DNA of 64,000 nucleotides, taken from positions 21,034,840 to 21,098,839 of the forward strand of contig CM075767.1 of NCBI GenBank assembly GCA_037974665.1, read 5' to 3'. Below the pieces are notes generated by a model. It saw nothing but the letters and a program-made list of their open reading frames with translations, was not told where the DNA came from and did not search any database. A program made the position numbers and the translations under genes. Every line of letters starts with the position of its first letter. Position 1 is the first letter of the stretch. The stretch is from Ehretia macrophylla. Lineage: Eukaryota > Streptophyta > Magnoliopsida > Boraginales > Ehretiaceae. Shown here piece after piece: positions 21,955-54,141 of the stretch.

Positions 21955-24900
21955 ATGTCTGTCGATGGGGCAGCAACACAAGATCGGAACAACAACAACC
22001 CCCGACAACAGCAACAGGACCAACAACAACAACAGCCGCTGATGACGCAAGCACAGCCGACGCTGACGTCAGCAGCAGGAGGAGGAGCAGCAGCAGGTGG
22101 AGGAGGAGGCGGCAATCAAGGTGGTGGCGGTGGCGCGAACACGCATGGGAATGGGAATGGGAACGGGAACGGGAACGGCGTCGTATCTCCTTCTCCAGTG
22201 GGGCCGGCTTATACGATGCTGACGACAACGCATCGGTTGAGGTTGAACCCTAACGCCGAGCATAAGCCGGATAGCTACGAGGACTTGGAAATGCAATTGG
22301 AGTTTAGTCCGTTGGTGTTTAGTGCCCTCGAGAGGTATCTGCCGCCGAGTTTACTGAACGTCTCGAGGGACTCCAAGGTTCACTACATGCGCCAAATCCT
22401 CCTCCGTTACTCGCCTGAAGGCGAACGCACTCGGGTAAGCTTATCTTTATCTATACATGGAATGATTGTGTTTTGTGTATGTTGTAGGGTTTAGTAATTA
22501 CGCATGTCTTGGTTAGAGCTTATCTTTATCTATATGTGATATGATTGTGGTTTATATTATGGTGTCGCATTGTTAAGTAGTAACTCGTGTTAATTATTGT
22601 GGGATTAGTTGATATTTTGGCCAAGAATCTGGTATGTGGTGCGGAGTTCTTGGACTGGGGCATGATAATATATAGTTGTATGTGGGTTTGTATCTCTGTA
22701 CATGCAAGGATATGGTGTTGTACATTTGTATCTTGCGGTTCGGCTTTTGAATTATTGTTATTTTGGTCGTTGTTAAATTTTGTAAAAAAATAATAATTTT
22801 GTAAAATTATAAAATCAAATTTTATTTAGTTAATTGATTCTTTGTTTTTCGTGTGTGTCGGACTTGTATGTGGAAAGTGAAAAATTAGCTTAAATTAAGC
22901 AAGCATTGCGGGTTGCGGCTTTATGGGTGTTTCAGGAGAGGGGAAGGGGGATTTGTTATGGTGAATGTGGATTGTGATGGGTGTAAGGGACAGATTGAGG
23001 GGTGTGTGAGTGTGCAGGAGCATATGTACATGCAAGCACATGGTGTTCTACATTTGTAATATTTAAGTTTGTGGGAATATGTCTGGTTGTGCTATGGTTG
23101 GGGTTTCGAATTACTGTTGATTTATTTGTTTTTGCACTAATATAAATTATTTTTCATTTTCTATATTCAGAAATAAAATTTAATTTCTTTTTTCTTACCG
23201 TGTTGGATTGGTCCGAGAAAAGTGAAAAGTGAAAAATTAGCTTAATTAAGTGAACATGCGTCTGCGAGTTGCTGCTTTATGGGCATTTGGTAAAAGGGGA
23301 AGGCGAATTTGTTTTGGGTGTGAATTTTTTACTATCTGCAGATGTAATTATGTGTATGCGTGTGTACATGCAGGGATATGATGTCGTACATTTGTAATCT
23401 TTGATTTTTGTGGAGATTTTGCTTTTGAATTTTATGTGGAAATATGTGTTTGTGATGTTGAAACTGAAAGATTGCCTTAACATGGTTCTGCTTGCGCATT
23501 GCACGGGGCGGACAGTGAGGGGGAAGTGTTTTAGTGACTTGCGGTTGTGTGTTGTGAGACTCAAGGGTAGATTGGAGGGTGGATGGATAATTTGGGGCTG
23601 CATATGGGAGAAGTGAGAGGATGAACATTATTTATCTGAAACACTCAAGTATTATTGCGTCTTTTTTACATAGGTGTTGTTTCTGTCATTTTTGGCACCA
23701 GATTTTTATTTAGGTGATGGGTGTGGTGATTTAGATTTTAGAGTGGTACTAGAAATTTGGTTAATTATGATTATGGGTAGGCTCTTTTTTACTCTTGGTA
23801 CTTCTGGTAGAGTTTGGTTCGGTAACCATGTGACTAGGCAACTATAAATTTGGAGTTCTGTGCTTCTGTTTTTCCTTCTTTTGTCTTTTGGTTGGTGGGA
23901 AGTGAAGAAGACTGAAGATCATAGTTTTATATCTGAAATTATATTTTCAAGTACTGTAATGCTGGGAATGATCAATCCAATTATCCAAAAAATTCCAGGC
24001 TTTATGTTCTACAAACAGTGGTAGTGAGCTTTGAGCTTTCCGTTTCGATTCTACCAGCCTGTTAAATAATGTATCATATAACCTTAGTGTTGAGGCCCTG
24101 ATACGGGTTCTTAGGGCTGAGAAGTGAGACAAGATCAAAACCAAGTCAAAGTTGTTTGTTGCTTTGTAGAGAATGAAAAATGCTACCTTAAATATTTAAC
24201 TTGTCATTTTTTAAATTGCTGATCAATGCTGGTAGCAGTTCTCACCCTCTAATGAAAGGAGTTTTTAGTATCAATTTAATAATACAAGTTACTGGAAGAA
24301 AAATTACATCTGGGAGTGGGTTGGGGGGGTTATTGCAATTATTCAGAGGGAACTGTTAACTTGTTAGTGCAAAACTTGTATTTCAGAGTTCTAATTGATC
24401 AAATAAGGGTGCTTGACTAGTGGTTACTTTATAGCTTTAGTTTTTTAACTTTGTAGATTGCTACTAACAAAGTGTATTGAAAGTGGAGTTTGACAGTACT
24501 AGTGAACCTGTACTTCTGACTGAAAAGATGGAACATTCCTTGTAAGCTTTTGAGGTTTTGTAGTTTCAATTTGGCTGCAAGATGCTGGAGATGGCAGGGA
24601 GAATTCAATGAGATCTTAGATGTGCTTTACTCTTCAGTTTCCAGTTCCTGCAACTGGTTTGGTGCTGCTCTGGTATTGGAATGGAAGTTATGGTTGTTGC
24701 TTGAGAGTGAAATATTTGGCTCAGATGACTGAAATACTTCACTCTTTAGTATATTTTCTTTTTCGCCCTTTGATAATAAAAGAACAAAAAGAAACCTTTA
24801 TGACACGTGTAAGAGGAGGACGGGAACTTCCCCGATAGACTGAAGTGCATAAAATGGAAAGGGAACCACATCTCTGTATGAAAGATCAGGTAAACAGTGC

Positions 24901-27900
24901 TGTTCAATCTATTCTAGCAGAATAGCAAGTTTGCTATCCATTTATCTTCAGCAAGGATATCCTTCCCGATGAGAAATGAGGAGGAAGATATTAATCAAGG
25001 CAAATTCTTGCTGTCTAGTGCATCAAAACGTGTTTTCTTCAGTCATGGGCTTCCTTTCTTTCTGATGTGCTCTCTCTCTCTGTCAACATGCAATCCTCCT
25101 GTCCTGCATTTTGAATGAAGTAATCAAGTCTTTGCATGTTTTGCATTTGCTTATGACATGGCATGTGACCTATTAGATATACTTTTATGATTTATGAGAT
25201 AATTTCTCCGACTCCTTTTTCAGAATTTCTTCCGTACTGTATTTTACTGGCCGAACAACTGTTGACATTTCTCTACTGCTTCTTGTAACAGCTCCAGAAG
25301 CATAGAGAATACAGGCAGAAGATTATATCAAACTATCAGGTATTTGTGGTGAACTGATATTAATTTTATTAGCTGTTTGCCTCTTCACTATTAGTTGTTT
25401 GATAGCCTTTTCAATTCAACTCTCTTAAGCAATCAGGTGTTCCTGTGGTAAGTCGGTGCTTGAGAACTGATATATTACTTTTGAGCCTACTACAATTTTG
25501 TCAAAATGCGGTTTAGCAGGCTCTCAGCATCCAACTGAAAGAGTAGTGGAAATGTTTTGGCTTGAAAATCAAGTCAGTCGAATATTTGGAGATATTTGAC
25601 CAAGGAAGCAGCTTATGAGCAATTCAAAACTTTTTAGTCCACTATAAATGTTGATGTATTTCCACCATTCTTTATCTGTTAACTTGTTCTGCTGTCAAAG
25701 CTAGTAGTTAAACTAATGGGAAAGTGAAGAGCCATTTGTTCGTCCACATCAGTGAAGTTGGAAGGAATAGTTAAGTGATAGGACCTCAGGCTTCCTCAAA
25801 AAGCAGTTAACCGCTGCATGGAAAAAGACCTTAGACCTGAGAAAACATCCATTCATGGACAACTGTCTCTATGCATAGATAGGTTGAGTACTAACTTTGA
25901 TGTTAAGAAGGTAAAACAGAGTGGAATTGGATACTGATTCCTCCTCGTTCATAAGGGTTTTAAAAGAACAAAATTCCTTGCAATAATATTTCTCTAGGAG
26001 TTGCAAAAATTGAAGTATGAGATGTTCATACTATGTTCATACTTCCTGGGTGCAGCTAATGCAAAAATGCTGAATGCTAGTATGATTTTCTTCCTCATAA
26101 TTAGCTTTGTTTTCTTTTCAGCCTCTTCATAGGGAGCTATACTCTATGCATGCTGCAAATTTCTTTGTTCCTTCATTTCTGAAAGCAATCAGTGAGAACA
26201 CAGAGGAGAGTTTCAGAAGTATAATGTCTGAACCTTCACCAGGAATCCTTGCCTTTGAAATGTTACAGCCGCGTTTCTGTGAGATGTTACTGGCTGAGGT
26301 ACCACTTTACTTTGCTATACTTCTTATGCATGCTAACTCGAGTCTTCCCTGTAGTTTAGCTTTTATGTTTCCTTATCAGGTTCTGATTGCTTAGGTAGAA
26401 AATTTTGAACGGTGGGTCCATGAGACGAGATTCAGAATCATGCGGCCTAATACAATGAATAAATTTGGTGCTGTGCTTGATGATTTTGGTCTGGAAACCA
26501 TGCTTGACAAGTTGATGGAAGATTTCGTACGCCCGATATCAAGAGGTACAGATTTCTGCTCATAACTAGTATGTGAAGAGAAGAAAGTAGTCCAGCTAAG
26601 CACTGCAAGTTCTTCAATTTAATCTTAGGGTTTCAAAATCTTGTGCAGTTTTCTTTCCTGAAGTTGGCGGGTCCACTCTAGATACTCATCATGGTTTTGT
26701 GGTTGAATATGGGACAGATAGAGATGGTGGCTTAGGTAGGTAACCTATTCAAGTTTTGACCTGTCCAAAGCTAAGTCATTCAACTTTGCCGATGAAGTTG
26801 CATTTCAATATATAATTTGGTCATTTCCTTTGTGTTGTCTCCAGTTTTAAATCTTTCTACCGGTGAAGCTAGGTTTGGTAATATGATTCTCGCTTAGGGT
26901 GCGAGAGGTCCGGAGTTCAATTCTCTGAATGCCCCTTTACATTTTTTATGTCATTGTTGTAGATAGTATTCAAGAATGTATAGATAATTTATGGTGCTGA
27001 TGTAAATAGCTTTTGGGCTGCAACCCCTAAGTGCATATTACTAGAATTTATTAACTTAAAAACAAGAAAAATCATCTTATGTCTTTTGATCGTTTCAATG
27101 AGTGTGGTATAACATGTCATCAATTTTTCTCTGGATAATAAATTCTTAAAATTGCTGGTGACGTGTTTTCCTCGAAATGTTAAAATTTTTTGTTAACCTT
27201 TTAATGTGTTAGGGGCTTCAGAACTTCCCTTTAGGACGATTGACTGTAGTTCTAGGAATCTCAATAGCTTTGCATTTGTGTAGGTTTCCATGTTGATGAT
27301 TCAGAAGTTACTCTGAATGTATGTTTGGGTAAGCAATTTACTGGCGGAGAGCTGTACTTCCGTGGTGTGCGATGTGAGAAACATGTAAATACAGAAGCTC
27401 AAGCAGAGGTAAATGGATCTTTAGTCCCATTAGCTCAATTAATTTTAAAGAAAGGTCTTGATGACCATGAACAGTTAAGGTGTAGCTCGATTTCTGCAAT
27501 GTGAGAAATATCTTTGCAGATTATATTAGTGATTGGAGACTCATATGGAACTTGAAATGCTACCTTCACAGGAGATCGTGGATTACTCGCATGTTCCAGG
27601 GCGTGCAATTCTTCATCGTGGTCGGCATCGACATGGTGCTCGGGCCACAATAGGTGGACATAGGATTAACTTATTGTTATGGTGCAGAAGGTAATTGAGA
27701 TCCTCTCTTATTACTCTGTATATGTTTGAGACATTACTTGTGCAAATCCATTATTACATCTGAATTAGTAAACACTTATGAAAGTTGTCTCCTGTGCGTT
27801 ATATATTGCTGCATCAAATCTATCATCTGAAAATCATTGGAATATCTCCTTACTTGGAAGAGTTTGTGAATGAACATCTTAGACTTTCTGTTAAATTGAA

Positions 27901-28411
27901 GTATTCTTCAGAGATTGGTCGGAGCAGAAATCAGCAGCAGGATTTTAATCATAATCTTTTGAAACTCTCTTTAATCTGCGGACTGAAATCTGTATCAGTG
28001 GTCTTGTCATCATGTCAATGTACATCCTCGTGCAGCAAGATCTTTCCAAAGGGCCATTAGATCATGATGGCCAAACTGTCTGTTCTTGTCTTTATTGATG
28101 AATATTTCTTCCTGTTAGAAATCTCTTCTCCATTCTACTCAAATCCTGTTCTTTTGTTTTCTCAGTTCTGTGTTCAGAGAGCTGAGGAAATATCAAAAGG
28201 ACTTCTCTAGCTGGTGTGCAGAATGCCAGCGTGAGAAGAAGGAAAGGCTGCGCCAGTCTGTTGAAGCAACTAAATTGGTATTTTCCTCGTACTTCAAATG
28301 TCTCCATTATGTTGTAAGATACACCATACATATAAAAATAAAACCTAATTTTTTTTTGTTTCTAATACTTTTGTCCAGGAACTACTGAAAAGAGAAGAAG
28401 CTGCTTCATAA
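21955..28411 (+). CDS. 2-oxoglutarate/Fe(II)-dependent oxygenase, plant PKHD-type hydroxylase (At1g22950/At3g18210 group), nine exons
   Basis: Exons 21955-22434, 25292-25339, 26122-26298, 26395-26545, 26649-26735, 27284-27408, 27572-27690, 28166-28277 and 28379-28411 all have GT-AG borders and join in frame to 443 residues plus TAA. The N-terminus (about 1-88) is low complexity: Gln runs, Gly runs and NG repeats. The conserved body begins RLRLNPNAEHKPDSYEDLEM and runs through FFVPSFLKAISENTEESFR, RPNTMNKFGAVLDDFGLE and FFPEVGG. The double-stranded beta-helix is visible: HVD (H317, D319) would hold iron with a distal His, probably H377 in RGRHRHGAR, and R387 is placed to bind 2-oxoglutarate. 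The family hydroxylates protein or small-molecule substrates; the substrate is not shown here. A Cys/Lys-rich tail follows. Intron 1 (2.86 kb) contains a triplicated 330-bp segment and intron 5 a tRNA relic. Confidence 0.93.
22698..23700 (+). repeat. Three imperfect tandem copies of a 328-338-bp segment in oxygenase intron 1
   Basis: The motif GTACATGCARG..ATGRTGT.GTACATTTGTA starts at 22698, 23026 and 23364. Copies 1 and 2 also share AAAGTGAAAAATTAGCTTAA followed by a GGGTTGC(G)GCTTTATGGG-like block. Copy 3 is partial and more diverged, so its right end is approximate. Confidence 0.65.
26862..26935 (+). pseudogene. tRNA-Pro(AGG) pseudogene in oxygenase intron 5
   Basis: The anticodon arm is intact: CTCGC-TTAGGGT-GCGAG with anticodon AGG at 26896-26898. 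The T arm (CGGAG-TTCAATT-CTCTG) and the 3' acceptor strand GAATGCCCC are also present. The 5' half is degenerate: the acceptor strand should pair with ATGCCCC but reads GGTGAAG, and the D arm has insertions around CTAG and TGGT. It is probably a dead tRNA copy; a tRNA-derived retroposon is the alternative. Confidence 0.65.
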
Positions 28412-29823
28412 TCTGTTACTTATGTTTTGCTCAAGTTAGGTATGTAATATAGCAGAAGACCATCCTTGACAATATTTATCCTGTGGTAATATGGAGGGTG
28501 AAGGTGTTGTCTGTTTATGCTGTTCCTCAAAATAGTTGTACATTCGAATGACATAGGTGCGGTGTTGTTCACCTTTTCGGCTGACTTGAACATTGATCAC
28601 CATCAATGATGGCGCAATCATTCTTTGTAGTTATATTCTGCTTATAGTGAATGGAGCATTGCCTTATCAAATGCACATTTTATTATGCTCTCTTTTGTCG
28701 AACTTCGTCCGTATGTCCTTTTCTACCTTCTAAATTGAGGAACTCCTGCAGATGTAGAACAAAATGCTGTATTTGATTTGTAGTAATTATGCTTCAGAGA
28801 TTGCTTTTTAATTCTGATGTAGTTTTTTTTTTTTAAAAACTTGATGCTTGAAATTAGTATTGCTGCAACTGTGAGTAATCATGCTTCAGAAATTGCCTTT
28901 TGCTGGATATGATATCTATGTCCAGCTTATACAAGGTCAATATCCTGGTGCCACACACACTTACAAGTCAGACTATTACACTCATATGAATCACGCGTTG
29001 GCACGCAGGATCTTGTCAAGGAGGTTCTTTTGTGATTAGCTTCTACTAGTAAGAGGTTGTTCCCAAGCCAGATTTCTTTGATGATCCACGTGTAAGCCAC
29101 ACAATGGTGAATTTGTCACAGGCTTTCTCCACACCACCTGTCACACTATGGGAGCTGGTTATGCTTAAAGTCGGTGTCAGCTACAAGGAGGGGGATGCTG
29201 AATGCAGTCGAAAGATGCGTCCACCCCCGACTAGGCAGACTTCCAACATGAGGACAATCCGTGCAGGCGGAGGATACTATGTCAGGTGCTATCAATGATT
29301 CTTGGACAGAGCCTTTCTGCACTAACACATCATCTCTTAGCAATAAAGTGAAATCTATATCCATGTTGGTTGCTGGTGAAATCGTCTGTGGCGTTTTGCA
29401 ATTGATGAAAGTAAGTACAGATTCTTTCAATTTGCTTGATGGAAAAGTATGTCTTTCTTGCACTTCTTACAGAATCAAAGAATATCAAGAATCAAAGCCT
29501 AAATCTTTATGGAGCATTGCTGCTGCAACTAGCAACGTTTAGAACTAATGAAGCCTTCGAGAATGCTTTCTACATACAAATATAGAGAAGTCCAACTCCG
29601 ATATCATGTTCTCCTTTAAACCCCATGATTTGTCAATTAAATTTGTCAAATAAACCAAGCAACAAATAAATTCATAGATGAGAAACTAATATACACAATA
29701 CAAGCAGGCATCATCCTGTGTGTCTTGCACATAACGCACTAGTCATCATCTGAACTAAACTAAGTCTTATTCTCGTTAAGTGTTATCAGGGCTTAAATTT
29801 TCCTTCACCGTACATTCTTCTCC
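28412..29823. other. Intergenic region between convergent genes, no gene assigned
   Basis: It holds the oxygenase 3' UTR and the 3' side of the membrane-protein gene. A roughly 85-bp imperfect tandem duplication (AATTATGCTTCAGAGATTGC and AATCATGCTTCAGAAATTGC) lies at about 28785-28900. From 28930 to 29540 base composition is more gene-like and short open frames exist (for example 29261-29542 plus), but none resembles a known protein and no splice model is supported. Confidence 0.35.
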
Positions 29824-30879
29824 TTACATTTGTTTAGCTTTGTGAACTCTGGATAAAGGAACACGAGTTTTCCACATCTTCTCTTCCAGACTTCGCCAAT
29901 TGCACATAACACTCGTCCGTGCACGAGGATACCTCAAAGATACCGATTTCAACTTGTGCTGCAAATGCACGAGGAAGACACAACCACCAAGAGCAACCCA
30001 GGTGAATTTTCCGAGCCCGAAGAGACTTATTGCACAATCCAAAATCGCACCAATGAAGAAGTGAAAAACCCCAAAATCAGTACGAGGTTGTATCACGGCG
30101 AGGTTTCCAAGCCAAGAAACGGCTAACGACGACAGCATCACCAAAAGAGAAACCGACTTTTTCTGAATACAATACTGAGATAGGATATAACCCATCCACC
30201 CAAGAGGGATTTCGATCATTTTCATGTTTACAACTTCATATAACCTAAGTCGTGACACATAATGTTGTCTTAGACAAAATGTAACGAGGAAGAATGCAAA
30301 TATGACACAAGAACCAAACAAGTGAGCAATGTTTAGAACAATTTCAATAGGTTTACACGGGTCCGAACAAGAACTTATGCAAGCAACTGAGAAAAGCGAA
30401 GCTGTTAGCAAAGCACAGCAAAGAGTATGACAAGGGTACATTAAAAAAGGCCCTGCAAATCCAGTCAAAAACATTCCCATCTCTTTACACTTTCTATAGC
30501 GTATAAGAACGGAGTAAACAACAGGAGGTAACAGTACAAGAATAAGCAATGGCAAGCAAACTTGGACGAAGATGGTCAATCGCTGGTACCTTAAAAACCA
30601 CATAGGATAAACGGGTAGTAATAAAACCAACAGCAGATTGTTTAAGAAGTGAGCGAGGTAATTTATGATTCTTCCATTGGTTAGATCAGGCTCCATTAGA
30701 GGACGAACGAAGAAGGCATAGATAGATGAAAGGTATGAGGGGAAATATATTAGACCCTTATAATCATCTGGGATGAAGTTAAGCAGACTGGCTTCATCTG
30801 AAGCAACAAGTGCAATTGTTAGAGTTATTTGACTGATGATGGACCAAAATGAGTTGTACCAAACTGATGAGAATTCCAT
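29824..30879 (-). CDS. Multi-pass membrane protein of unrecognised plant family, intact copy
   Basis: A single uninterrupted frame of 351 residues starting MEFSSVWYNSFW. I do not recognise the family. About nine hydrophobic segments are visible, roughly at 11-26, 43-59, 74-96, 103-126, 135-170 (perhaps two), 179-202, 222-237, 241-262 and 270-308. Basic stretches lie between them (RYRKCKEM at 127-134) and the C-terminus is basic. Distinct motifs are GPFLMYPCHT (143-152), GWMGYILSQ (227-235) and a conserved block SWLGNLAVIQPRTDFG (255-270). The same motifs recur in two broken copies at 37.9-38.9 and 49.0-49.7 kb, so this is a local gene family. There is no evident cleavable signal peptide. It is intronless and faces the oxygenase tail to tail. 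Transporter or enzyme activity cannot be inferred. Confidence 0.75.
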   Translation of the reverse strand: MEFSSVWYNSFWSIISQITLTIALVASDEASLLNFIPDDYKGLIYFPSYLSSIYAFFVRPLMEPDLTNGRIINYLAHFLNNLLLVLLLPVYPMWFLRYQRLTIFVQVCLPLLILVLLPPVVYSVLIRYRKCKEMGMFLTGFAGPFLMYPCHTLCCALLTASLFSVACISSCSDPCKPIEIVLNIAHLFGSCVIFAFFLVTFCLRQHYVSRLRLYEVVNMKMIEIPLGWMGYILSQYCIQKKSVSLLVMLSSLAVSWLGNLAVIQPRTDFGVFHFFIGAILDCAISLFGLGKFTWVALGGCVFLVHLQHKLKSVSLRYPRARTSVMCNWRSLEEKMWKTRVPLSRVHKAKQM

Positions 30880-31209
30880 GTGCTTGATTTTAGGAAGAAT
30901 GGAAGAGAGTGAAGCAAAACTTTGACTAAAAATGGAGGTGATGAAGGAGGTGGTGTTGATTTATCATTTGTCCACCCAAATGACCTTATTATTTGGACGA
31001 TAATGCCCTCTACATCACTTTATAGCACGAGAAGCCACAAAATACACCTAAACCAAGCTCCTTTGTGCGAGCTAATTCAACGTTAGAGGTGAGCCGTATA
31101 CACGAATATCATCACAATTATTCTTAAAAGTATGATTTGTGGATTTTTTGCGGGTGGGCCATCTATACAAAAAATCTCTAATTTTTGTTTTGAATTCTTA
31201 AAAGCTTAT
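30880..31209 (-). promoter_or_regulatory. Upstream region of the intact membrane-protein gene
   Basis: Directly upstream of the ATG on the minus strand is a pyrimidine-rich leader (TTCACTCTCTTCCATTCTTCC). No TATA box is assigned. The upstream DNA soon meets the nested TRIM and Mutator-like element at 31210. Confidence 0.3.
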
Positions 31210-31217: not shown

Positions 31218-31711
31218 GGGAGAATAGTTTCGTGGTCAAGTAAAATTAAATATAATTTTTATGTGGTCTAAAAAATATAGTTGAATTTTTCTGTGGTTTA
31301 TTCGTTGATGTACACTACCCTCTTCGTCAAATTTTCTATCAAAATTGACGGAAAGTGTACCACACGCGCGTAAATTGTTATTTTTATTGATTTTTAACGT
31401 ATTTAATAATAAAATAATATTAGTAATTAAAAAAATTTAATTTTTTCTTTTTTCTTTTCATTTTCACCTATTTTTTTTTATTACTAAATTAAAAAAAATA
31501 TTATTTTATTACTAAATACGTTAAAAACTAATAAAATTCGCATTTTACGCGTGTGTGTTATACTTTCCATCAGTTTTGATAGAAAATTTGACGGAAGAGG
31601 GTGGTGTGCATCAACGGGTGGACCACAGGGGGGTCCGACTATATTTTTTGGACCACAAGGGGATTATAGTTAGTTTCGCTTGATCACAGGAGGGTCTGGG
31701 GCTATTCACCC
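31218..31711. mobile_element. Mutator-like MITE, 494 bp, with perfect 9-bp target duplication
   Basis: TTGTTAGAA lies on both sides (31209-31217 and 31712-31720). The ends GGGAGAATAG and the complement of CTATTCACCC begin terminal inverted repeats that extend about 200 bp with gaps, including GACGGAA and TTTTAACGTATTTA. The 9-bp duplication and long TIRs are the Mutator superfamily signature. No open frame. Confidence 0.8.
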
Positions 31712-35045: not shown

Positions 35046-37277
35046 ATAATGAATATGAATAAAACTAATTATTACAAACAGTGTATATAAAACAATGAAA
35101 TGAATATAATAAAAACATTAGTAAACAATATAAATTTAAATAATTATAATATAAATATAAATATGAATATAAGATAATAATACAATAATTATATAATAGA
35201 GATAAATAAAAATAAATAAAAATTACAATAATAATAATATACCTCAAATTAACCATTATGATATATATGATGTTTATTTTTATTCTTAAGACAATAAAAT
35301 ATCTATAGTAACAAAGGGCATTCTAGTCATTTTGTATAAATCATTCCTATTACTGCTCTAGTGTATTGACTACTAAACATAAACTTGGAATCAATATATT
35401 CTATTCATTTTTATCTTAGGTAGCGGTTGGTATACTGGAATGAATTTGGGCAGGAATGGAATGAGCCAAGGAAAGGAATGAAATTGGGAATGAAATGAAC
35501 TTGAGAATGAGAATGACATGTTTGATATGCTATACGAATTAAGAATAGTTATGTGAATGACTTGTATAATATATATAATAGAATTTTCCTTTTATTATTA
35601 TAGTATTAAAAATAAGAATAGATATAAACATAACCGTAAACAATATAAACATAAATAATAATAGCATGACTTATCTTTTTTCAATGTTATTTTATTCCTC
35701 AACTCATTAATTACATTTAAATCTAAAATCATTCAAAAATATCAATTGCTGCCTTATTAATTTGTTATCATTCCTAATCCAAGTGATTGAAATTTTTGTT
35801 CGTAGGAGAAGTATAATAAATTTCTCCAAGAACGCGAGGTCAAGATCTAAGTAGATCTGCTAGCACAGTGTTATTTATGTAATTAATGATTATTCATTTT
35901 ATATAAATATTTTGTACAATTAGTGTTAGTATTAATGATATGATTAACTATTTTGTACAATTACTTTTAGTTATTTGTGCAATAATTTTTGTGTAATATA
36001 TATATATTTATTTATTTATTTATTTATGTATTTGTATAATAGATTCCTGTTCTTTTTCTTGCTATTTAATAATATTTTTCCATTTGAAATAAATAAGTTT
36101 ACATAGGATTTTGCCAAAGATTAGCCCCAGGCTACTCCCGTAATGAATAGCGATGGAAGTGGCGACAGATCTCGTTCCATCACTAGTTGCAACAGACATT
36201 ATTTCAGCTCAAACAACAATATACATTCTTCTGTCATCGTTTATGCGATAGATTTGGTGTCGTACTTATTTCTGTCGCCATTTTGCGGCAGATTTTGCAA
36301 TTGACTTTTTCTGTCTCTAAAGGCAACATAGATTAGCAGCCTAAATGCTATTTTATGATGCCCGCTCTTATGACCATCTTTGTGCAATGTATTTTTTGTG
36401 GCTAACTAAGTTTGCGACGGAAATTTTCCAAAAGTCGCATTAGTTTTTCTCATAGTGAAATTTAGGCGATAGCTACTCTCTAGTGAATTGTTTGCTGTTG
36501 TTACATTTTTGCGCTCTTTTTTTTTTTTCTCCTAATTCTATTTGTTATGTTTGTATCATAACAAACACTTAGATATCTTTATGGTTCTTTTTCTCTCTAT
36601 AAAGTAGGTAAAAAACTTTTTGAAAATGGTAGACATGGTGCTTTTTTTGGATGAGTGTATATTTTTGTCTTTTGTTAACTCAAGTTAACAAACTGTAATA
36701 GAAGTCAATATTGTGGCAAGTGAGTAACATCTGAGATACCACGGGATTTCATGCAACTTTTTAGAGCACAAAGTTTTATAAACACAGGCGTATATTGCGC
36801 ATTTTTCTCCTTCAAACAATAAAAGTAGATATATCATTGCGGAATTGGTTTAGCATGTATGGATTAAAAAAAAAGAGATACTTTGTCAGCAAAAATATTA
36901 GCACTGTTTTCAAAAGCTGGTCTTCTTGAAATATTTCAAAAATTAGTCAAAAATTGTGTTTAAAAAATTTAATTCGACTAGATAAGTGAAATGGTGATAA
37001 TTGAAGTGGAAAAAAAATGCTTTCTATTAACATCAAGGTATTGCATAGCTTCTAAATGTTTTCAATTAACATCAAGGTTATTACATAGCTTCTAAATGCG
37101 ACACGATTACAACCAAAAAGATTTAGTGGCAGAAAACTCAATAAACATAAACGAATCGGACAAGTCCAATGAGTTTGGTCTAGAGAAAATTATTAGGTTC
37201 AACTGGCGAGACTTGATCTATGACACTCAGGTGGAATTTACAAGAGATCCGTTTGGGTCCGCATCCAAGAACTTTCC

Positions 37278-37765
37278 TTTTTTTTTTTTTTGCTAAGTCA
37301 TCAAAGAGATTCATTGATTGAACAAAAAAACGTACAAAAATAATTACAATAAGAAAATGGATGTTCTATCTATAAACCATCCATGAATTACATATAGCTC
37401 TATTTAAAAGTATGTTTCTAACTTTCTTTATCATGTACAATTTAGTTTTAACGTCAAAACTAATAGAGTCCAAGATTTGTTCCTCAGTCTGCGCTATATT
37501 CGCAAAGATCCTCCTGTTCCGCTCCTTGTAAATGTGATAGACAAAAGCGTTCCATAAAATTTTTAGAAAAGTGATCTGAAAGTTATTATCGGGACAATTT
37601 TGTATGAGCCAGACACTAAAATCATTCCAGTTCCGAAGATTTTTCGGGCCTCTAGAATTCCTCTATCATGCCCTCCAAATCTTTTTAGAAAATGAGCAAT
37701 CAAAGAAAAGGTGATCCAAGAATTTTCCGTTGTCCAGCCATAAAAGCACGTACCATGCGGAGAAA
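37278..37765 (-). mobile_element. 5'-truncated L1-type LINE, 3' end
   Basis: On the minus strand, frames encode DNGKFLDHLFFDCSFSKKIW, the zinc-finger domain that follows LINE reverse transcriptases, then a shifted frame with FVYHIYKERNRRIFANIAQT, the usual LINE C-terminus. A poly(A) tail is seen as T at 37278-37291. It is absent from the duplicate locus at about 48640, which dates it after the duplication. Stops and frameshifts show it is dead. The 5' limit is approximate. Confidence 0.75.
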
Positions 37766-37878
37766 TGAAAAGAAAAAAAGCACTTCTTTGACACTGATAA
37801 CTTCTATAATACATAATGGGAAGAAAAGCTATATATAAGCAAACCTGCTTGCTAGCATGCTGCACGGAGAGTTCTGCA

Positions 37879-38939
37879 TTACACCGGTGGATCAAGAAGA
37901 GTATGGATTCTTGTGTCATACTTTAGCTGCTCCAAACGCTTCCAATCTCTTATAACACTCTCTAGCGCCCAAGAATGCCGCACTCTAACAAGATCCAGCT
38001 TCAAGCGCAGAAGAATCAAGAGAATACAAGCACCACAAATGAGCCATGTATAAATGCGTAGCCCAAAAAGACTCGTTGCACAATCCACAGTAGCACCAAT
38101 AAAAAAGTTGAAAATTCCAAAATCAGTCGAAGGCTGCGCTATAGCCAGGTTCCCCAGCCAAGAGATGGTAAACGACAGAAGCGCCCAGAGAAGTGCTAGA
38201 GATTTTTCTTGAAAGATTTGGTCAAGTAGTATATAACCCAACATCCCAACTATAATTTCAATTGTTTTTCTGTTCTCATATATATAACGAACCACATATG
38301 ATCTGCTTAGATATGGTTCATAATCAATTAAAGCCAGATACATCATAAGAAGATGTGCAAATGATAGAGCCAATGGAGTAAAAGATTGTAATGGGAATAG
38401 GATCTCTTCTTGATGTGGACCTGCGGGGATGCATCCAACTATAAGGAAAACAAACATGAATAAGAGCCAGCTTATAGTTTGACAAGGATACATAGCTAGA
38501 GGACCTATCCCAGCTGTTAAAGCAATCTGACCTATTGACATTGACAGTGAATTTCGTAATTCCCTTAAGTTTTTCATGATCCAGCTCTGAGTTTTATACC
38601 AAAACACACCCTTTAAAAGAAATTCCACCACTATCGTTGTCCATCGCCGAGAGAGCGCCGTCATGTAAAGGACATGTACAAACCGTTGAAGCAGAAGTAA
38701 TATTGTTGAAGTTCATGCCACAGATTTATGTTGATTTGCTCGTGCTCTAGGGGAGGACGCAAAAGAAAAGCGTAAGAACAAAATAAGAATGCAGAGAAAG
38801 TTACGAAAACCTTAAATAGATTTGCAATAGTTGTGGGAACCGTTAGGCTGGTTCTCTCCAATACAAGAAATCCAATTGTTACGAAAATCAGCCTAGTAAG
38901 AGACCAGAACCTTCAATACCAAGTTCATGAGAACCACAT
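37879..38939 (-). pseudogene. Membrane-protein family pseudogene, copy 2
   Basis: It aligns with the intact copy at 29824-30879 from start to end. The start region reads MWFS-stop-TWY-stop-RFWSL against MEFSSVWYNSFWSI, so two in-frame stops lie within the first nine codons (start ATG at 38937-38939). A frameshift follows near NLWHEL (about 38710), after which a 261-residue frame (37879-38664) remains open through MYPCQTISW, GMLGYILLDQ and SWLGNLAIAQPSTDFG to its own stop. Because the C-terminal 260 residues are intact, a shorter protein from an internal ATG at 38664 is conceivable, but it would lack the first four hydrophobic segments. Decay is the simpler reading. Confidence 0.75.
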
Positions 38940-44147: not shown

Positions 44148-44668
44148 CGGGTAAAGTCACCAAACACCCTGGGGCTTGCCGAAAGTGTACAATATCCCCT
44201 ATGGTTCAAAAATTCCCTGCACACTATCATGTGATTTGCCGAAAATACACAACAAACCCTACTGTAAAAAATCTGTCATATTTAAAGAAGTGCATAGAAC
44301 ATGCACGTTAAGTGAGACTTTTATTTGTTACTAACAAATTTGAGAATAAAATAATTATAATAGTTAACCAAATTACCCTTTTACAAAAAGAAAACATTAA
44401 AAAAAACAAAAAAAGAAAACAGTCATCTTTCCTACCACCCCCTGTCACCCGCTTACCTTTACCCAGCTCGTCACCTCCACCCCCACCCCCACCCCCACCC
44501 CCACCCATCCCCATCAGCACCCCCAAACCCTCCAGTTTATCACCTCCCCCCTATTGAACCCCATCAATCCTACCCCATCCCCCAGCTTGTCAGCCCCCAG
44601 TCATATATACATATATATGTGTGTGTGTGTATGTGTGTGTGTGTGTGTATGTGTGTGTATGTATGTGT

Positions 44669-44737
<69 letters not shown>

Positions 44738-44932
44738 CTAATTTTTGTGTGGTAAATATCTATATGTGTGTATATTTTTTGTTTTTTGTGTAGAAAGGGA
44801 AAATGACAAAAGAGGGAAATGAATAAAGATTGAGGGTATTTATGTCTTTTTATGAAGTCTGTTAACTTTTTTGACGGTAGGGATATTGTGCATTTTTGAT
44901 AAATCACTGGGGGGGACTGGTACACTTCACCT
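44148..44932. mobile_element. Mutator-like non-autonomous element carrying C-rich and microsatellite core
   Basis: The left end GGGTAAAGTCACCAAACACC pairs imperfectly with the complement of the right end (GGTACACTTCACCT). Subterminal GTGTACAATATCCCCT pairs with GGGATATTGTGCATTTT. Flanks TTAATCTTA and TTAATTTTG match at 7 of 9. The core has C-runs (44430-44590), a GT tract (44619-44670) and an AT tract (about 44677-44737). Confidence 0.5.
44677..44737. repeat. AT microsatellite of about 60 bp with adjacent GT tract
   Basis: About 30 TA repeats directly after a (GT)n/(GTAT)n tract at 44619-44670. It generates open frames of Ile-Tyr repeats that are not genes. Confidence 0.9.
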
Positions 44933-46799
44933 TTAATTTTGCTATAGTACGTATGTTTCTCAACAAAAGATGTTAGAATACTCAATATTATACAAATTAT
45001 TATTTCACCATGAATAACATAAATAGATATACTCTAAAATGTATGGACCACCTACCAACTTATCGCTGGCAACTTTGTAATGAGTCAGAACTGACACAAA
45101 TTTTTAGCACATACTTGTACTTTGATGTTGTATCTATAAAAATATTATAAAAAAATAGAAGAGAATCAAAACAACTTTTATGAATAAAAAATTAATAAAT
45201 TCACATTTCAAATTGAAAGTGAATATTAATGACCTTTTGAATAACAAACACGAGTCATATAATTCACAATATAACATCCAATAGTCAGGGTATACAATGT
45301 TAAACTACTTTTTACATGAGATAAAAAGTCAATTTTCACTCCTCAAAATATGCTCAATAGTAAAAGTGACACATATGATATCTTATAAATTGATAGCAAA
45401 AAGATCTAAGCATATAAATAGTACACAAGTGGCAATACTTGAATGAGAAACAATGAAAAGAGAAAAAAAATTGCAGCTCATATAAATACAAAGTACAGCT
45501 ATTTGATCTATCTGGTTCCTTAAATAAGTGTACATCCCTAAGATAGATAGGATACAAATAAAAAAATTAATTTGATAATTGTTTTAATAAATCTCATAGT
45601 GCGCATCGAATAGGTTCTATCAAATATATTCAAAATAGTGAAATAGAAATTTTTTACATATAACTTACTAAAAGACAACATTTTGTTGTAAGATTTGTTT
45701 ATTTTCTTATACATGGCAAAACGACTGTTACCTTATAATAGTAATAGATTCTAAAAATGAAAAAAGGATAAAAAAAGCCAAAAAATGTCTTTAATTAGTT
45801 TATACTTTTATGGTACATTTTAATTCCTTTTTGAATTCATGAATTCACTTATATGATTTCTTAATCTCAATTTTGTAGAATGCAAATTTGCCTTAAATTC
45901 GAATTGGAATTTTTTTCTTCTTCTCTTTTCATTTTTTTTTTTATCATGAGGAATTCATCTTAGGTAGGTACACATTGGATATCTTCCCCAAGACTATAAA
46001 CTCTATAGTATAGCAACATACTCAGCCCAATGAATGTCTTTGTTAGTTAAAGGCTAAAAGATATTTAGGAGGATATAAGCTTAAATTCATTTTTTTTCCT
46101 TGAAATGTACAAGTACACAAAATAATACAATTAGCTTTAGCATTAATCACGCCATCCGTGACAAATTAATTTTTTTCTCTAAATTTGATGGTTGATCCTC
46201 CATTAAAGATGTACAATGTCATATATATTATTTTTGAAACTACTGGTGTTGGATGATTGTTGTGTTTTTGATAAAATATAATTCCAATGTTTATGACAAA
46301 CCCCTCCCCCCCAAAAAAAAATGAATTTTACCTTTAGAGAAGCTTGCTAAAAAATATCTTTCTTTTTTATTTAACAAACTATATTTTAGTCCATATCTAT
46401 GAGACTTGAGACAATAATTGAGGGACCTTGCCACACATAATTGATCTTTTGGTCAAAATCTTTCAATCCCATATTTGATATAAACACAATCATTAGTAAT
46501 TTAGGCGAACTACCATACCAAATCAACTTTCCCCCATCCATACATTGTAAAGTTTCGAGTTGTGCTAGGTTTAGAATTTGTCATTAGTTTATTTTTACTT
46601 TTCTCCTTAATTGATCACAATTCAATTTTCAATCACTTTCATTTAATTTTCCAGTTTTTGAATTCTTTGTGACAATCTCAATTTTCTGAACCACCCTTGC
46701 ATAGCCATTCGTGTTGTTAAAGAGGACTTTAACTTCACTGTGGTTGCTTTATTTTTATAACTTATTATTTTTCGTACAACAACACGGTCAATATAAAAA
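44933..46799. other. AT-rich intergenic DNA, nothing recognised
   Basis: No gene-like frame, paired repeat or RNA seen over about 1.9 kb. Confidence 0.3.
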
Positions 46800-46935
46800 A
46801 AAATAGTTATTATAGACAGTGTATATGAAATAATGAAATAAATATAAGAAAAATTAGTAATATATAATATAAATTTAAATAATAATTATATAAATATGAA
46901 TATAAAATAGTAATACAATATTTAAATATAAATAA

Positions 46936-46937
<2 letters not shown>

Positions 46938-46999
<62 letters not shown>
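46938..46999 (+). repeat. TAA microsatellite (about 20 units)
   Basis: An uninterrupted run of about twenty TAA/ATA triplets. The duplicate locus at about 35225 has only a few units. Confidence 0.85.
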
Positions 47000-48830
47000 T
47001 CCAATTAACCATTATGATATATATGATGCTTATTTTCATTATTAAGACAATAATATATCTATAGCAATAAAAGGGCATTCTAGTCATTTTCTATAAGCAA
47101 TTCTCATACTGTTTTATGGTACTGACTATCAATCATGGACTTGAAATCAATATATCAATTTCTATCTTTATTTCTAGACTTTATCAATCGTGACATACCA
47201 TTTCTCAAGTTCATTCAATTTTTAGGATTATTTCATTTCTTAACTCATTAATTCTATTCATGTCTAAAATCATTAAGAGATAGAAATCACCACCTTATTG
47301 ATTTGATATCATTCTTAATCCAAGTAGTTTGAAATTTTTGTTCGTAGGAGAAGTATAATAAATTTGTGCAAGATGCGAGGCCTATATCCAAGCAGATCTG
47401 CTAGCATAGTGTTATTTCTGTAATTAATGATTATTTATATTCTATAAATATTTTGTACAATTAGTTTTTTTATGATGATATGATTAACTGCATTGTACAA
47501 TTATTTTCAGTTATATGTGAAATAATTTTTGTGTAATATATATATTTTGTATTTATATATTTGTATTATAAATTATTTTAATTCTCTTGCTATTCAAAAT
47601 TAATTTTTCCATTTGAAATAAATAAGGCACATCTCTAGTTACAATAGACATAATTTCAGAGCGCAAACAGCAACATACATTCTTTCGCCTTCATTTTGTG
47701 ACAGATTTAGTGATGGACTTATTTCTGTCAACATTTTGCAGCGAATTTGGAAATGGACTTCTATCCATCTCTAAAGATGAAATGGATTAGCAACCTAAAT
47801 GCTATCTTGCGACGCCCGCTCTTGTTACCATCTTTTTAGCAGTGGATTTTCATGGGTAATTAAGTTTGCAACGGAAATTTTCTAGAACCCGCATTAATTT
47901 TGTTACATTTTTGCTCTCTCTCTCTCTTTCTCTTTTTCTTTATTTTTCATAATTCTTTTTGTTATGTTTGTATCATAACAAACACTAAGATCTCTTTATG
48001 GTTCTCTGCCTCTCCTTAAAGTAGGTGAAAAAAACTTTTTGAAAATGTTAAAAATGGTGTCTGTTTTTTGACGAGGGTATATTTTTGTCTTTTGTTATGT
48101 TTAACTCATTTGACAGATTGTAACGGAAGTCAATATTGTTGCAAGTTAGTAACATCCGAGATACCACTGGGTTTCATTGAACTTTTTAAACACAAAATTT
48201 TATAAACAACTTCGCTAGAACACAAGTGTATATTGCTCATTTTTCTCCTGCAAACAATAAAAGTAGATTAATCATCGCAGAATTGGTGTAGCATGTATAG
48301 ATTCAAAAAAAAAAAAGACATACTTTGTCAGCAAGAATATTAGTATTGTTTTCAAAAGCTAGTCTTCTTGAAATATTTCAAAAATTAGTCAAAAATGATG
48401 TGTTTAAAAATTTTAATTCCACTGGATAATTCAAATGGTGATCATAATTGAAGTGGAACAGAGGGAGTATTTTTGTTATGTTTCAACTATAATTTCATTG
48501 AGAAAAAGGTAAGATCGATAACACATGGTGGTTAAGTTGAGTGGCACAAGTGGAATGGAAAAAATGCTTGCTATTAACATCAAGGTATTGCATAGCTTCC
48601 AAATGCGATACAATTAGTACCAAAAAGATGTAGTGGTGAAAAAAAAAAAAATCACTTCTTTTAACCAAACATAAGAAATCGGAATTATCAAACTTTCTTA
48701 GACATTGGTTTCTTCTATATACAATGGGAAGAAAAGCTATAATTAGCAACCTGCTTGCTAGCATGCTGGACGGAGAGTTCTGCATTATACCGCTAGATCA
48801 AGGAGACTATGGATTCTTGAGTCATAACTT

Positions 48831-48973
48831 AAGTTTTGGTTCACGTACAGCCATTAGGTCAGGTGAGGGGACGTTTGCGTGTCCCATTCGTAGGTGCGGT
48901 TAATCCAGTTATGTCTCGTGGGCTTATTGAGTAGGGATATTTCCCAAAAGTACCAAAAAAAAAAAAAAAAAAA
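48831..48973 (+). mobile_element. Short poly(A)-tailed insertion (SINE-like)
   Basis: About 120 bp beginning near AGTTTTGGTTCACGTACAGC and ending AAAAGTACC followed by about 20 A. It splits a sequence that is continuous in copy A (37908-37925), so it inserted after the duplication. A GGTTAATCC could be a decayed pol III B box, but an A box is not clear. The flanking target duplication is at most about 5 bp (CTTA). Confidence 0.5.
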
Positions 48974-48977
48974 CCTT

Positions 48978-49743
48978 AGCTGCTCCAAACGCTTCTAATT
49001 AAAAAGCGCCCACAAATGCCGCACTCGAACAAAATCCAGCTTTGAGTGGAAAAGAATCAAGAGAATACAAGCACCACAAATGAGCCATGTATAAATGCGT
49101 GGCCCAAAAAGACTCGTTGCACAATCCACAATAGCGCCAATAAAAAGGTTGAAAATTCCAAAATCAGTCGAAGGTTGCGCTTTTGCCAAATTCCCTAGCC
49201 AAGATGGCAAACGACAGAAGCGCCCACAGAATTGCTAGAGATTTTTCTTGAAAGATTTGTTGCAGTACAATATAACCCAACATCCCAACTATGATTGCAA
49301 TTGTTTTTCTATTCTCATATATATAACGAACCACAAATGATCTCCTTAGAATATACTTCATAATCAATTAAAGCCAGATACATCATCAGAAGATGTGCAA
49401 ATGATAGTGCCAATGGAGTATAAAGTTGTAATGGAAATAGGATCCAATCTTGATGTGGACCTCCTGGGAAGCATCCAGCTTATAGTGTGACGAGGGTACA
49501 TCGCTAAAGGACCTATCCCAGCTGTTAAAGCAATCTGACCTCTTGAAACTGTCGTGGAATTTCGCATTATCGTCAAGTTTTTCATGAGCCTTAACTGACT
49601 TTGATAGACGAAACCATCACCCAAAAAAACAACTAAAAAGAAAAAGAAAAAGGAAAACATTAAAATATGATTAAATTGAACACCTTGCGCCAACAAGACA
49701 AGCCCTTGGTGTCTCTGAAATTTATGGGGATGTTGGTGGATGG
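48978..49743 (-). pseudogene. Membrane-protein family pseudogene, copy 3 (5' truncated)
   Basis: Three shifted frames carry family motifs in order: VYQSQLRLMKNL and GIGPLAMYPRHTISWM (up to 49696), then SFVVRYIYENRKT and GMLGYIVLQQI (49164-49367), then SWLGNLAKAQPSTDFG and DCATSLFG (48995-49210). Relative to copy 2 it has an out-of-frame deletion after TISWM, a frameshift before SWLGN and loss of about seven residues before KRLEQL. Everything corresponding to the first third of the intact protein is missing, and the copia LTR starts at 49744. Confidence 0.75.
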
Positions 49744-51263
49744 TGTTAGTAAATATACATGATAATTAAAATTAATTACGCAGCAAAAAATAATTATGTA
49801 TTCGTTCATATTTAATTACGTAGATTTAAATCAGATAATAATTTAATCTAATTAAATTAAATCTGCAATAGTTTAGGATTACCTATTGAAACGTAGATCG
49901 ATGTAGAATTTGAATCAAGCTCCCAACGTGTGAAGCCTCCAAGATTGATCCACACAGAATCCGCACTTGCTAACTGGATTTTTCCCCTACTAGTTTTCTA
50001 GAGAAATTCTATATATTTTCTAACTGATGGAACGCATATGACTTAGGGCCATATGTGGACTGGACTAAAATAACCAGTCTTGGGCTACATTATATCAGAT
50101 CACTATCTAATTACTACGAGCCAGATTAAATTAATATTTAGGACTATTCTAAATTTAATTTAATATTTTTTCTCTAATCTAATTAATCTGCAAATTCCAT
50201 TTGTGTGTGACTTCTCGGGTTCATAATTAATCTGTAGCGAATAATTAATTCTACTAATTAATTAAAGTAGAACTACTTCTAATCAATTCGCAAATCGCGA
50301 GTGATACCTAGCAGTATATCATGATTACCCAATTAAAGATAAAGTGCAAGAATGCAAACCCAAATAGTAATTTATATGTAATCAAATTCTACTGTGTCAA
50401 TTATCCTGATCGAGCCAGAGTCATGGATTGGGTCGCCAAACTCTCGTACTCGACCATATGTCAAAACCTAATTAATTAGTAATTAATGAATAATCCGTGA
50501 AATGACTTCCACTATTACATCTTGGCCACAGATTTCTAGTTACTTAATTAATTGGATCGTATAGGATTCCCAATTGACAGTTTCTGTATCTACACGCACA
50601 TTTCTCTATGACGGAATAAATCACAATCATTGAATACATTGTCTAATCCATGATTATGACTCGTTTAATTACACCAGCAAACCATGATTTCCTAATCATG
50701 AGATAATTGTAGTGTCTCAGGTCTGATGATTAATTGCATGATTACATGATATAATGAATTATTGACATTTCATGTAATTCATTGTATTGGTGGTCAAGTC
50801 CAATTACTTATTCGTAATAAGTATTTATACATCTATTACAACGATATGAGACAAATCGCCCCAAACTAATATCTCATATAATTTGGTTAGTATACTGTAA
50901 TCCGATCTATCCGAACAAACTAACGCCCAATTAGTTTATCCTATAATCGGGGATAACTTTTAGAATATATTAGTAATATAGATAAAGTTGCCAGAGTACG
51001 ATTAACCTCTTGATTTGAAATCACTGCTTATATACCTGGTATTGGCCATAATTTACAAGAACATTATGTAGTCTTTCCATCATTCATATCATTACTCCTA
51101 AGGATGGAATCTGCAAATAATATTCTAAGGACTTTATTTATTCAATTGAAACATTTATAATAAATAAATAAACTGCCCATACTAAAAGAATTAATAAATT
51201 AAATAACACATTATCCATAATTTCAAAAATACAATTTATTGGCTTTTGGGTATTATTCTAACA
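49744..51263 (-). repeat. 3' LTR of the copia element (1520 bp)
   Basis: Plus-strand ends are TGTTAGTAAATATACATG and TTATTCTAACA. Substitutions and indels against the other LTR indicate an old insertion. Confidence 0.9.
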
Positions 51264-51276
51264 ATCCCCCACTTGT
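51264..51276 (-). promoter_or_regulatory. Polypurine tract of the copia element
   Basis: On the minus strand AAGTGGGGGAT directly precedes the 3' LTR (TGTTAGAATAA). Confidence 0.8.
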
Positions 51277-51399
51277 ACTAAAGGTAATTTGAATGGTATC
51301 TCATACCCATCCCCTCTAAGTGTTGATCCAAAGACTGCTTAGACAGAGCCTTGGTCAATGGATCAACAGTGTTATCTGCTGAAGCTACTTTCTGCATCA

Positions 51400-52080: not shown

Positions 52081-52116
52081 CTTATCTATGTATGTACTTT
52101 GGGAGAGACCTATTAA

Positions 52117-52790: not shown

Positions 52791-53252
52791 TCATGGCATC
52801 AAGCCATTTTCCTGAGTCCCTATCAAAAATAGCTTCCTCATAGATTAGGGGATCATCAATATGATCACCATCATCCAATGTGAACAACTCTTGTCCTTGG
52901 CTATCAAGGTAGCTATATCTTATGGGGGACGAATAGTCCTTAAAGATTTGCGTATCTATGGTGAAACAATGGATTCTTCTTGAATAGTTTCATCCTGAAT
53001 CAAATCCCGGGTTTCATTCTAGTCAATTAGTTGCTCAATGTTTCCCTCTTTGAGCTCCACGTTTCTTCCCAAACCACCTTCTTGGATGAACTATTCCTCC
53101 AAGAATATGGCATGTTTGTTGACGAAGACTCTCTGGTCAATATGAAATAAAAGTTGTATTCCAACGAATCCTTGGGATAACCAATAAATCTGACTTTATT
53201 AGACCTTGCTTCCAACTTCTCAGTTTAAGCCTTTAATATAAGCAGGACAACC

Positions 53253-53924: not shown

Positions 53925-54141
53925 GTGCCATATAATTTAGAGCTAAGGGTATCTCTAGACCTTTTAAAGGTCTGAACATTCATCAATTGCTCATTTGTTT
54001 TGTCATCTTTCTTTATGTCAAGTATATAAAGACCACCTACTAATTTGCCAGATTTATTTCACAAATAAATAAAACATCCATTATCCATAAATTTAAATTC
54101 AGAATCATTTTGAACTAAAATAAAAACGAAAATGATGTTTC

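What the first reader, a model, noticed from the sequence alone, without database searches (positions are those of the whole stretch)
29824..30879. Intact orphan multi-pass membrane protein with two local dead relatives
A 351-residue intronless frame with about nine hydrophobic segments and clear motifs (GPFLMYPCHT, SWLGNLA, QPxTDFG) that I cannot assign to any family. Two broken relatives nearby prove it is a real evolving family rather than a chance frame: the conserved block near residues 255-295 is kept in all three. It may be lineage-specific.
Basis: partly seen in the sequence, partly recalled or inferred. Interest (0 to 1): 0.7.

Follow-up and report, generated by a model that had tools for sequence, protein, structure and literature searches.

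The report
Fast-evolving plant membrane protein family
The membrane-protein gene in this window is real and kept by selection, and it belongs to an unnamed plant gene family with about 150 further copies or pieces, nearly all in one 3.2-million-base cluster elsewhere in the genome, where parts of the proteins change faster than neutral drift allows, as recognition proteins do.

Summary
In detail: an intact 351-codon frame (minus strand, 30879-29824) with nine or ten hydrophobic helices, and two broken relatives (B: two stops, one frameshift; C: three frameshifts). No Pfam, NCBIfam, PHROGs or PDB match. Many frames are intact (309-432 aa, mostly about 350, or 497-732 aa with a charged tail). 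In 28 cluster sequences maximum-likelihood dN/dS is 1.15; pairwise medians are 1.2-1.5 at dS 0.1-0.6, 0.9 beyond; site model M2a beats M1a by 2dlnL 288, a quarter of codons at omega about 3. Nearly gap-free subsets agree, one weakly. A tandem glycosyltransferase cluster of the same genome gives 0.54. Variable codons lie mainly in helices 3-4, helix 6 with the next loop, and loop 1. The window's copy is the exception: 0.42 on its branch. Best reading: a receptor-like recognition repertoire kept by birth-and-death, the window gene a constrained paralogue. Function is inferred; expression, ligand and distribution among plants could not be tested.

The parts
29824..30879 (-). Copy A: intact 351-codon frame (helical part only, no long charged tail)
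   Evidence: no relic of the long members' tail 3' of it
31019..31024 (-). TATA-like box 145 nt upstream of the ATG; a consensus match only
30751..30771 (-). Variable loop 1 (residues 37-43; 6 of these 7 have P(omega>1)>0.95)
30502..30654 (-). Variable module 1 (residues 76-126, helices 3-4 and the loop between)
30340..30477 (-). Conserved block (residues 135-180, with GPFLMYPCHT)
30244..30324 (-). Variable module 2 (residues 186-212, helix 6 and loop 6)
29980..30219 (-). Conserved core (residues 221-300, with SWLGNLA and QPRTDFG)
37906..38939 (-). Copy B: relative of A over residues 1-340, broken by stops at codons 5 and 9 and a frameshift near 38708; a 261-codon 3' frame (38664-37879) is still open
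49016..49612 (-). Copy C: relative without the N-terminal third, with three frameshifts, sister of B
35052..38598 (.). Block holding B, duplicated with the block holding C (76-91% identity in pieces)
46790..49606 (.). Block holding C, the other copy of that duplication

Best explanation
The gene encodes a roughly ten-helix membrane protein of a plant family that no searched library describes. The family has expanded, by tandem and segmental duplication with birth and death, into a 3.2-Mb cluster on contig C20. There it behaves as a recognition repertoire. A conserved helical core (helices 1, 5, 7-10 and the loops after helices 4 and 5) carries two variable modules (helices 3-4 with their loop; helix 6 with the following loop) and a variable first loop. 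These are driven to differ between copies, most simply because they contact a variable partner such as a ligand, an opponent's protein or a partner membrane protein. Long members add a charged, probably cytoplasmic tail that could pass a signal on; short members lack it. Copy A in this window is a dispersed short member held by purifying selection, so it probably has a fixed role (constant partner, co-receptor or transport). SHOWN by computation: family, cluster, intact frames, dN/dS pattern, constraint on A. INFERRED: topology, receptor-like recognition, signalling tail, the role of A, the mode of duplication.
For: Cluster: two protein searches give 150 places on C20 (148 within 18.69-21.90 Mb) besides A, B and C on C4. 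76 of the 115 C20 matches have no internal stop, as do 54 of the 76 matches longer than 985 bp (stops only, frameshifts not counted). Frames are kept: under neutral change 0 of 800 simulated frames stay open at d=0.2 and 15 of 800 at d=0.1. Diversification: median pairwise omega 1.48 (60 pairs, dS 0.1-0.3) and 1.20 (280 pairs, dS 0.3-0.6); estimator medians close to the true value in simulation; 28 cluster sequences: M0 omega 1.15 (2dlnL vs 1 = 7.2), M2a over M1a 287.6; 12 sequences on 335 of 348 columns free of gaps: M0 1.50 (12.7), M2a over M1a 73.0, most variable codons in the same segments. Control UGT cluster: 28 pairs, median 0.54, maximum 0.62; no site above 0.95. A's branch: omega 0.42, 2dlnL 23.3 against omega 1.
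Against: No ligand, expression or localisation data. Many variable codons lie in predicted helices rather than in loops, which fits a membrane pocket, a transported substrate or helix-helix contact as well as an outside ligand. Omega falls to 0.91 at dS 0.6-1.0 (93 pairs) and 0.68 at 1.0-1.5 (4 pairs), and NG86 counting gives a gene-wide ratio of 1.14 in 88 close pairs but 0.91 in 333 mid-distance pairs. With A included M0 is not different from 1 (1.07, 2dlnL 1.8), and A with L002, L003 and L010 gives M0 0.78. The clade L024-58 alone is weak (M0 1.22, 2dlnL vs 1 = 0.9; M2a over M1a 6.6). Pairs are not independent, gene conversion can inflate site tests, and the codon models are my own implementation. 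The sequences are mostly the best matches to A, not a random sample. The structure model of A is poor (pLDDT 52, pTM 0.30).
Confidence: 0.45

Rival explanations
1. Specialised transporter or membrane enzyme family: the variable helices line a substrate pathway, and copies diverge to handle many natural products, as tandem P450 or UGT clusters do (recalled analogy).
For: 22 of the 47 sites with P>0.95 lie in predicted helices 3, 4 and 6. The protein is a compact helical bundle without a large soluble ectodomain.
Against: The one tandem UGT cluster tested in the same genome shows median omega 0.54 and no site above 0.95, while here omega is about 1 or above gene-wide. No transporter or enzyme family matches in Pfam.
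Confidence: 0.2
2. Reproductive recognition, such as self-incompatibility or pollen-pistil discrimination, using an atypical multi-pass receptor comparable with PrpS or the Ipomoea SE proteins.
For: Multi-pass proteins restricted to their plant family serve, or are proposed, as S-determinants in Papaver and Ipomoea (PMC13033167, passages). A single cluster with diversifying selection fits.
Against: 0 of 50 matches to the SPH family PF05938 (PrsS type) lie in the cluster; the one on C20 is at 45.53 Mb. About 150 places are far more than an S-locus receptor needs. In the 50 kb of cluster read, no small secreted partner stood out by eye among frames of at least 90 codons, but no signal-peptide or Pfam scan was run on them and shorter or spliced genes would be missed. 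S-RNase and DUF247 searches did not complete.
Confidence: 0.15
3. Selfish amplification: the cluster is a genetic-conflict locus (killer/antidote or drive type) whose copies diverge through an arms race within the genome.
For: Matches at 18.694, 18.790, 18.886 and 19.001 Mb with identical scores suggest large repeated blocks; many dead copies, rapid change, one locus.
Against: No killing or drive phenotype is known here, and the constrained copy A on another contig suggests an ordinary function.
Confidence: 0.1
4. Relaxed constraint: the cluster is a field of decaying duplicates, and omega near 1 only reflects neutrality.
For: 39 of 115 C20 matches hold stops. M0 omega for all 29 sequences is not different from 1 (1.07, 2dlnL 1.8). 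In clade L018-27 the low class of sites is at omega 0.95.
Against: Frames of about 340-590 codons stay open at dS where 0 of 800 neutral simulations do. Strong site heterogeneity, about a quarter of sites near omega 0.3 and a quarter near 3. M0 above 1 in the 12-sequence subset (1.50, 2dlnL 12.7) and in the 28 without A.
Confidence: 0.07
5. A family already present in plant databases as uncharacterised protein, without a Pfam model (this concerns description and can hold together with any mechanism above).
For: No plant proteome was searchable here, so this cannot be excluded. Unnamed plant families are common (general knowledge).
Against: None of the libraries searched contains it.
Confidence: 0.5

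Closest known systems
PrpS of Papaver rhoeas (pollen S receptor)
   Same: Multi-pass membrane protein of no known family, without homologues outside its plant family, that recognises a variable partner without classical receptor domains (PMC13033167, passages).
   Different: About 20 kDa and linked to its SPH-type ligand gene. Here mostly 350-590 aa, about ten helices, a cluster of about 150 places, and no SPH match in it.
SE1/SE2/SEA of Ipomoea trifida
   Same: Homologous, polymorphic, family-specific multi-pass proteins at one locus (PMC13033167, passages).
   Different: Four predicted transmembrane domains and three genes.
Animal olfactory-receptor type clusters (recalled)
   Same: Large tandem clusters of intronless multi-pass genes with birth and death and variability in a subset of helices.
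   Different: Different helix number, plant host, function unknown. Recalled, not tested.
Tandem UGT cluster of the same genome (C14)
   Same: Tandem, single-frame, recently duplicated.
   Different: Purifying selection (median omega 0.54) against diversifying selection here.

Membership tests
Any Pfam, NCBIfam or PHROGs family | Profile match above curated cut-off, or of low E-value | tested here: not met
   A and B: Pfam nothing at E<=1; at E<=10 A none and B one chance match, 8.3 bits vs cut-off 23.3. NCBIfam none at E<=10. PHROGs: A 0.23 and 5.9, B none. Five C20 members: best 12.9 bits vs cut-off 26.3.
Protein of solved structure | Sequence or fold match in the PDB | tested here: not met
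   phmmer with A: 0 matches at E<=10; 19-sequence profile: one, E 0.25. The Foldseek search gave 0 of 100 matches at E<=0.001, but with a poor model it means little.
Transposon-encoded protein | TE domains, terminal repeats or retrocopy marks around the gene | tested here: not met
   No Pfam match for A; no repeat between its two flanks at E<=0.05 and no A run longer than 4 within 500 nt 3'. Copia domains found nearby show the Pfam scan works.
Diversifying recognition family (works-like claim) | dN/dS above 1 at a subset of sites, with a conserved core and open frames | tested here: met
   with controls; weak in one five-sequence clade
Diversifying recognition family (works-like claim) | Binding to a variable partner | not testable with these tools
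   needs experiment
Papaver-type self-incompatibility locus | SPH (PF05938) gene linked to the receptor gene | tested here: not met
   0 of 50 PF05938 matches lie in C20:18.69-21.90 Mb
S-RNase or DUF247 type S-locus | PF00445 or PF03140 gene in the cluster | not tested
   searches unanswered
Lineage-specific (orphan) family | Absent from other plant lineages | not testable with these tools
   no plant collection; plasmid, phage, viral-contig and prokaryote collections gave no relative

The most novel reading that the evidence does not exclude
Plants have an undescribed class of ten-helix membrane receptors that acts as a large, single-cluster, rapidly diversifying recognition repertoire, an intramembrane-pocket counterpart of NLR or olfactory-receptor clusters, with a constrained paralogue outside the cluster as a constant partner or ancestor.
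Probability: 0.25. Interest if true: 0.92.

Novelty: new variant of a known kind. Interest (0 to 1): 0.72.

Why it matters
Maximum-likelihood dN/dS at or above 1 across a plant membrane-protein cluster of about 150 places is unusual, and points to a continuing conflict or recognition role in a family that no searched library describes. It gives a defined, testable locus (C20:18.69-21.90 Mb), precise variable modules to probe, and a constrained reference copy in this window. If it is a receptor repertoire, it adds to the few proposed plant receptors without kinase or LRR domains. If it is instead a transporter family or a conflict locus, the pattern still needs explaining.

Tried and rejected
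Led nowhere: searches of plasmids, phages, viral contigs and prokaryote genomes; Rfam and tRNA scans; exact motif strings in papers, 0 papers; paper searches for orphan or tandem membrane families (0 papers; listings only); searches on OGFOD2/At1g22950, PrpS-like proteins and the Ipomoea S-locus (listings; of these only PMC13033167 was opened, passages only); fold search with a poor model. Internal duplication of A: rejected, 455 of 500 shuffles score as high. Codon-position asymmetry: uninformative, 35 of 164 controls as high. DNA alignment of the A and B flanks: no contrast between genes and flanks. Retrogene or TE origin of A: no poly(A), no flanking repeats. Relic of the long tail beside A, B or C: none, all matches E>1. 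The branch test had not converged and is not used; one search replaces it. The M0 value (0.951) was likewise not converged; one search gives 1.07.

Considered and rejected: wax-synthase-like and DUF4220/DUF594-like families (recalled, similar gene style), because Pfam shows no match.

Selection of sequences: of the loci fetched, L001-L030 and L049-L062 (44) were considered. L012 and L014 were dropped (no family frame of at least 230 aa), L026 and L030 also (frame ends early), leaving 40; at the 97% identity limit 31 remain. L061 and L062 (truncated) were left out of the site models, leaving 29. Members are mostly the best matches to A plus hand-picked distinct ones, not a random sample of the 150 places. 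The UGT control used 8 of 86 matches, chosen for long open frames in one cluster.

Full report
WHAT IS THERE. The frame is real but lies on the minus strand: ATG at 30879, stop ending at 29824, 351 codons. In 60 order-4 Markov copies of the window the longest frame never exceeded 176 aa. It has nine hydrophobic segments by the octanol scale; family averages and a low-confidence model point to about ten helices. A TATA-like box lies 145 nt before an AAGCACATGG start, only a consensus match.

LOCAL RELATIVES. B aligns with A over residues 1-340 (126 of 330 identical) and carries two stops near its start and one frameshift. C lacks the N-terminal third and has three frameshifts. B and C lie in duplicated blocks about 11 kb apart and differ at dS 0.25, omega 0.47 (2dlnL 7.35 against 1). 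Between A and B dS is saturated; the omega profile reaches the 95% limit near 0.1, is flat to about 0.2, and omega 1 is worse by 44.6.

THE FAMILY IN THE GENOME. Searching the window's own genome with A gave 116 matches: A itself and 115 on contig C20. Searching with B gave 147 rows: the three C4 copies (four rows) and 143 on C20. The union is 150 C20 places, 148 between 18.69 and 21.90 Mb and two at 26.98 and 27.12 Mb. Only the best candidates are scored, so more may exist; some places may be pieces of one copy. Of the 115, 98 are on the plus strand, 76 have no stop inside, and the median gap is 19.8 kb. The complete frames read run from 309 to 432 aa (mostly about 350, like A) or from 497 to 732 aa with a charged tail (B's and L026's shorter frames set aside). 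Five of them have no Pfam match near cut-off, and the flanks of A, B and C show no relic of the tail.

SELECTION. On 31 representative frames, pairwise maximum-likelihood omega over the helical part has a median of 1.19 (28 pairs, dS below 0.1), 1.48 (60 pairs, 0.1-0.3), 1.20 (280 pairs, 0.3-0.6), 0.91 (93 pairs, 0.6-1.0) and 0.68 (4 pairs, 1.0-1.5). In simulations the estimator's medians are close to the true value, with wide scatter for close pairs. Eight tandem UGT genes of the same genome give 28 pairs with a median of 0.54 and a maximum of 0.62. NG86 counting by region in 88 close pairs gives ratios of 0.33 (residues 1-24), 2.14 (25-60), 1.12 (61-97), 1.41 (98-134), 0.74 (135-163), 1.79 (164-220) and 0.69 (221-340); gene-wide 1.14, but 0.91 in 333 mid-distance pairs. 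On 29 sequences and 334 codons M0 omega is 1.07 (not different from 1) and M2a beats M1a by 2dlnL 266.8, with 24% of sites at omega 3.0 and 31% at 0.32; without A, M0 is 1.15 (2dlnL 7.2 against 1) and the gain 287.6. Subsets free of gaps: seven sequences, M0 1.54, gain 48.4; five sequences, M0 1.22, gain 6.6; the twelve together, M0 1.50 (12.7 against 1), gain 73.0; A with L002, L003 and L010, M0 0.78, gain 48.2; UGT control, M0 0.46, gain 4.5, no site above 0.95. The sites picked in the twelve fall mostly in the same segments. Neutral simulations leave 15 of 800 frames open at d=0.1 and none of 800 at d=0.2, so open frames at these distances mean selection keeps them.

COPY A IS DIFFERENT. 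On the same tree A's terminal branch has omega 0.42 against 1.16 elsewhere (2dlnL 29.1 against one ratio, 23.3 against 1). Five other single branches tested, L002, L003, L056, L057 and L060, lie between 0.81 and 1.25 and do not differ from the rest (2dlnL 0.2-1.5). Its twelve nearest pairs give 0.47-0.79.

ANATOMY. Of 47 sites with P>0.95, 22 lie in helices 3, 4 and 6, 14 in loops 1, 3 and 6, five in the C-terminal part, and six in helices 1, 2 and 10 and loops 2 and 8. Helices 5, 7, 8 and 9 and loops 4, 5, 7 and 9 have none. The positive C-terminal part suggests a cytoplasmic end. This topology is inference.

WHAT IT PROBABLY DOES. A conserved core with a few strongly driven segments, many copies in one cluster, and kept frames are the usual marks of a recognition repertoire. 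Because many driven sites are in helices, the partner may be met within or at the membrane. Transport of diverse compounds is the main rival; the one UGT cluster tested shows what ordinary metabolic diversification looks like in this genome. Self-incompatibility is a subset reading: passages of a review (PMC13033167) describe PrpS and SE proteins as multi-pass proteins restricted to their plant families that act, or are proposed to act, as receptors. No SPH match lies in the cluster (0 of 50); S-RNase and DUF247 could not be checked. In 50 kb of the cluster, six family stretches were found; by eye the longest other frames are Copia-type, a 107-codon frame recurs upstream of two members, and the remaining frames of at least 90 codons were neither assigned nor searched.

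NOVELTY. No searched library describes the family, and the paper searches found nothing on it (listings). Since no plant database was available, the family may exist there as an unnamed protein; the cluster and its selection pattern are the new points.

Noticed in passing
window 31232-31687: Foldback (MITE-like) element just upstream of A: arms of 97 nt, 88% complementary, 75 nt apart.
   Followed up: no
window 49744-58672: LTR retroelement with Copia pol and gag pieces on the minus strand (RVT_2, E 3.5e-34); its two LTRs, 49744-51263 and 57198-58672, are 87-88% identical. It lies beside the 5' end of copy C.
   Followed up: partly
window 37290-37790: Possible LINE 3' end with a poly(A) run directly 3' of copy B (by eye). 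No Pfam match above cut-off; a frame at 37566-37922 - matches DUF7703 below cut-off (21.3 vs 27 bits, E 0.00022). A zf-RVT frame lies at 59086-59358 +.
   Followed up: no
window 26101-26391 +: OGFOD2-like domain of a plus-strand gene that may run from about 21955 to 29300 and converge with A; the extent and the likeness to At1g22950 are recalled or judged by eye.
   Followed up: no
C20:18.694, 18.790, 18.886 and 19.001 Mb: Four matches with identical scores about 96-115 kb apart: recent large segmental duplications, or an assembly artefact.
   Followed up: no
C20:21063381-21063701 and 21094833-21095153: A repeated 107-codon stop-free frame about 840 bp upstream of two family members; may be part of the duplicated unit.
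   Followed up: no
C19:24.49-25.16 Mb and C14:16.48-17.11 Mb: Large clusters of UGT (PF00201) matches in the same genome.
   Followed up: partly
window 44401-44793: Long simple repeat seen as IYIYIY and HTHTHT frames on both strands.
   Followed up: no
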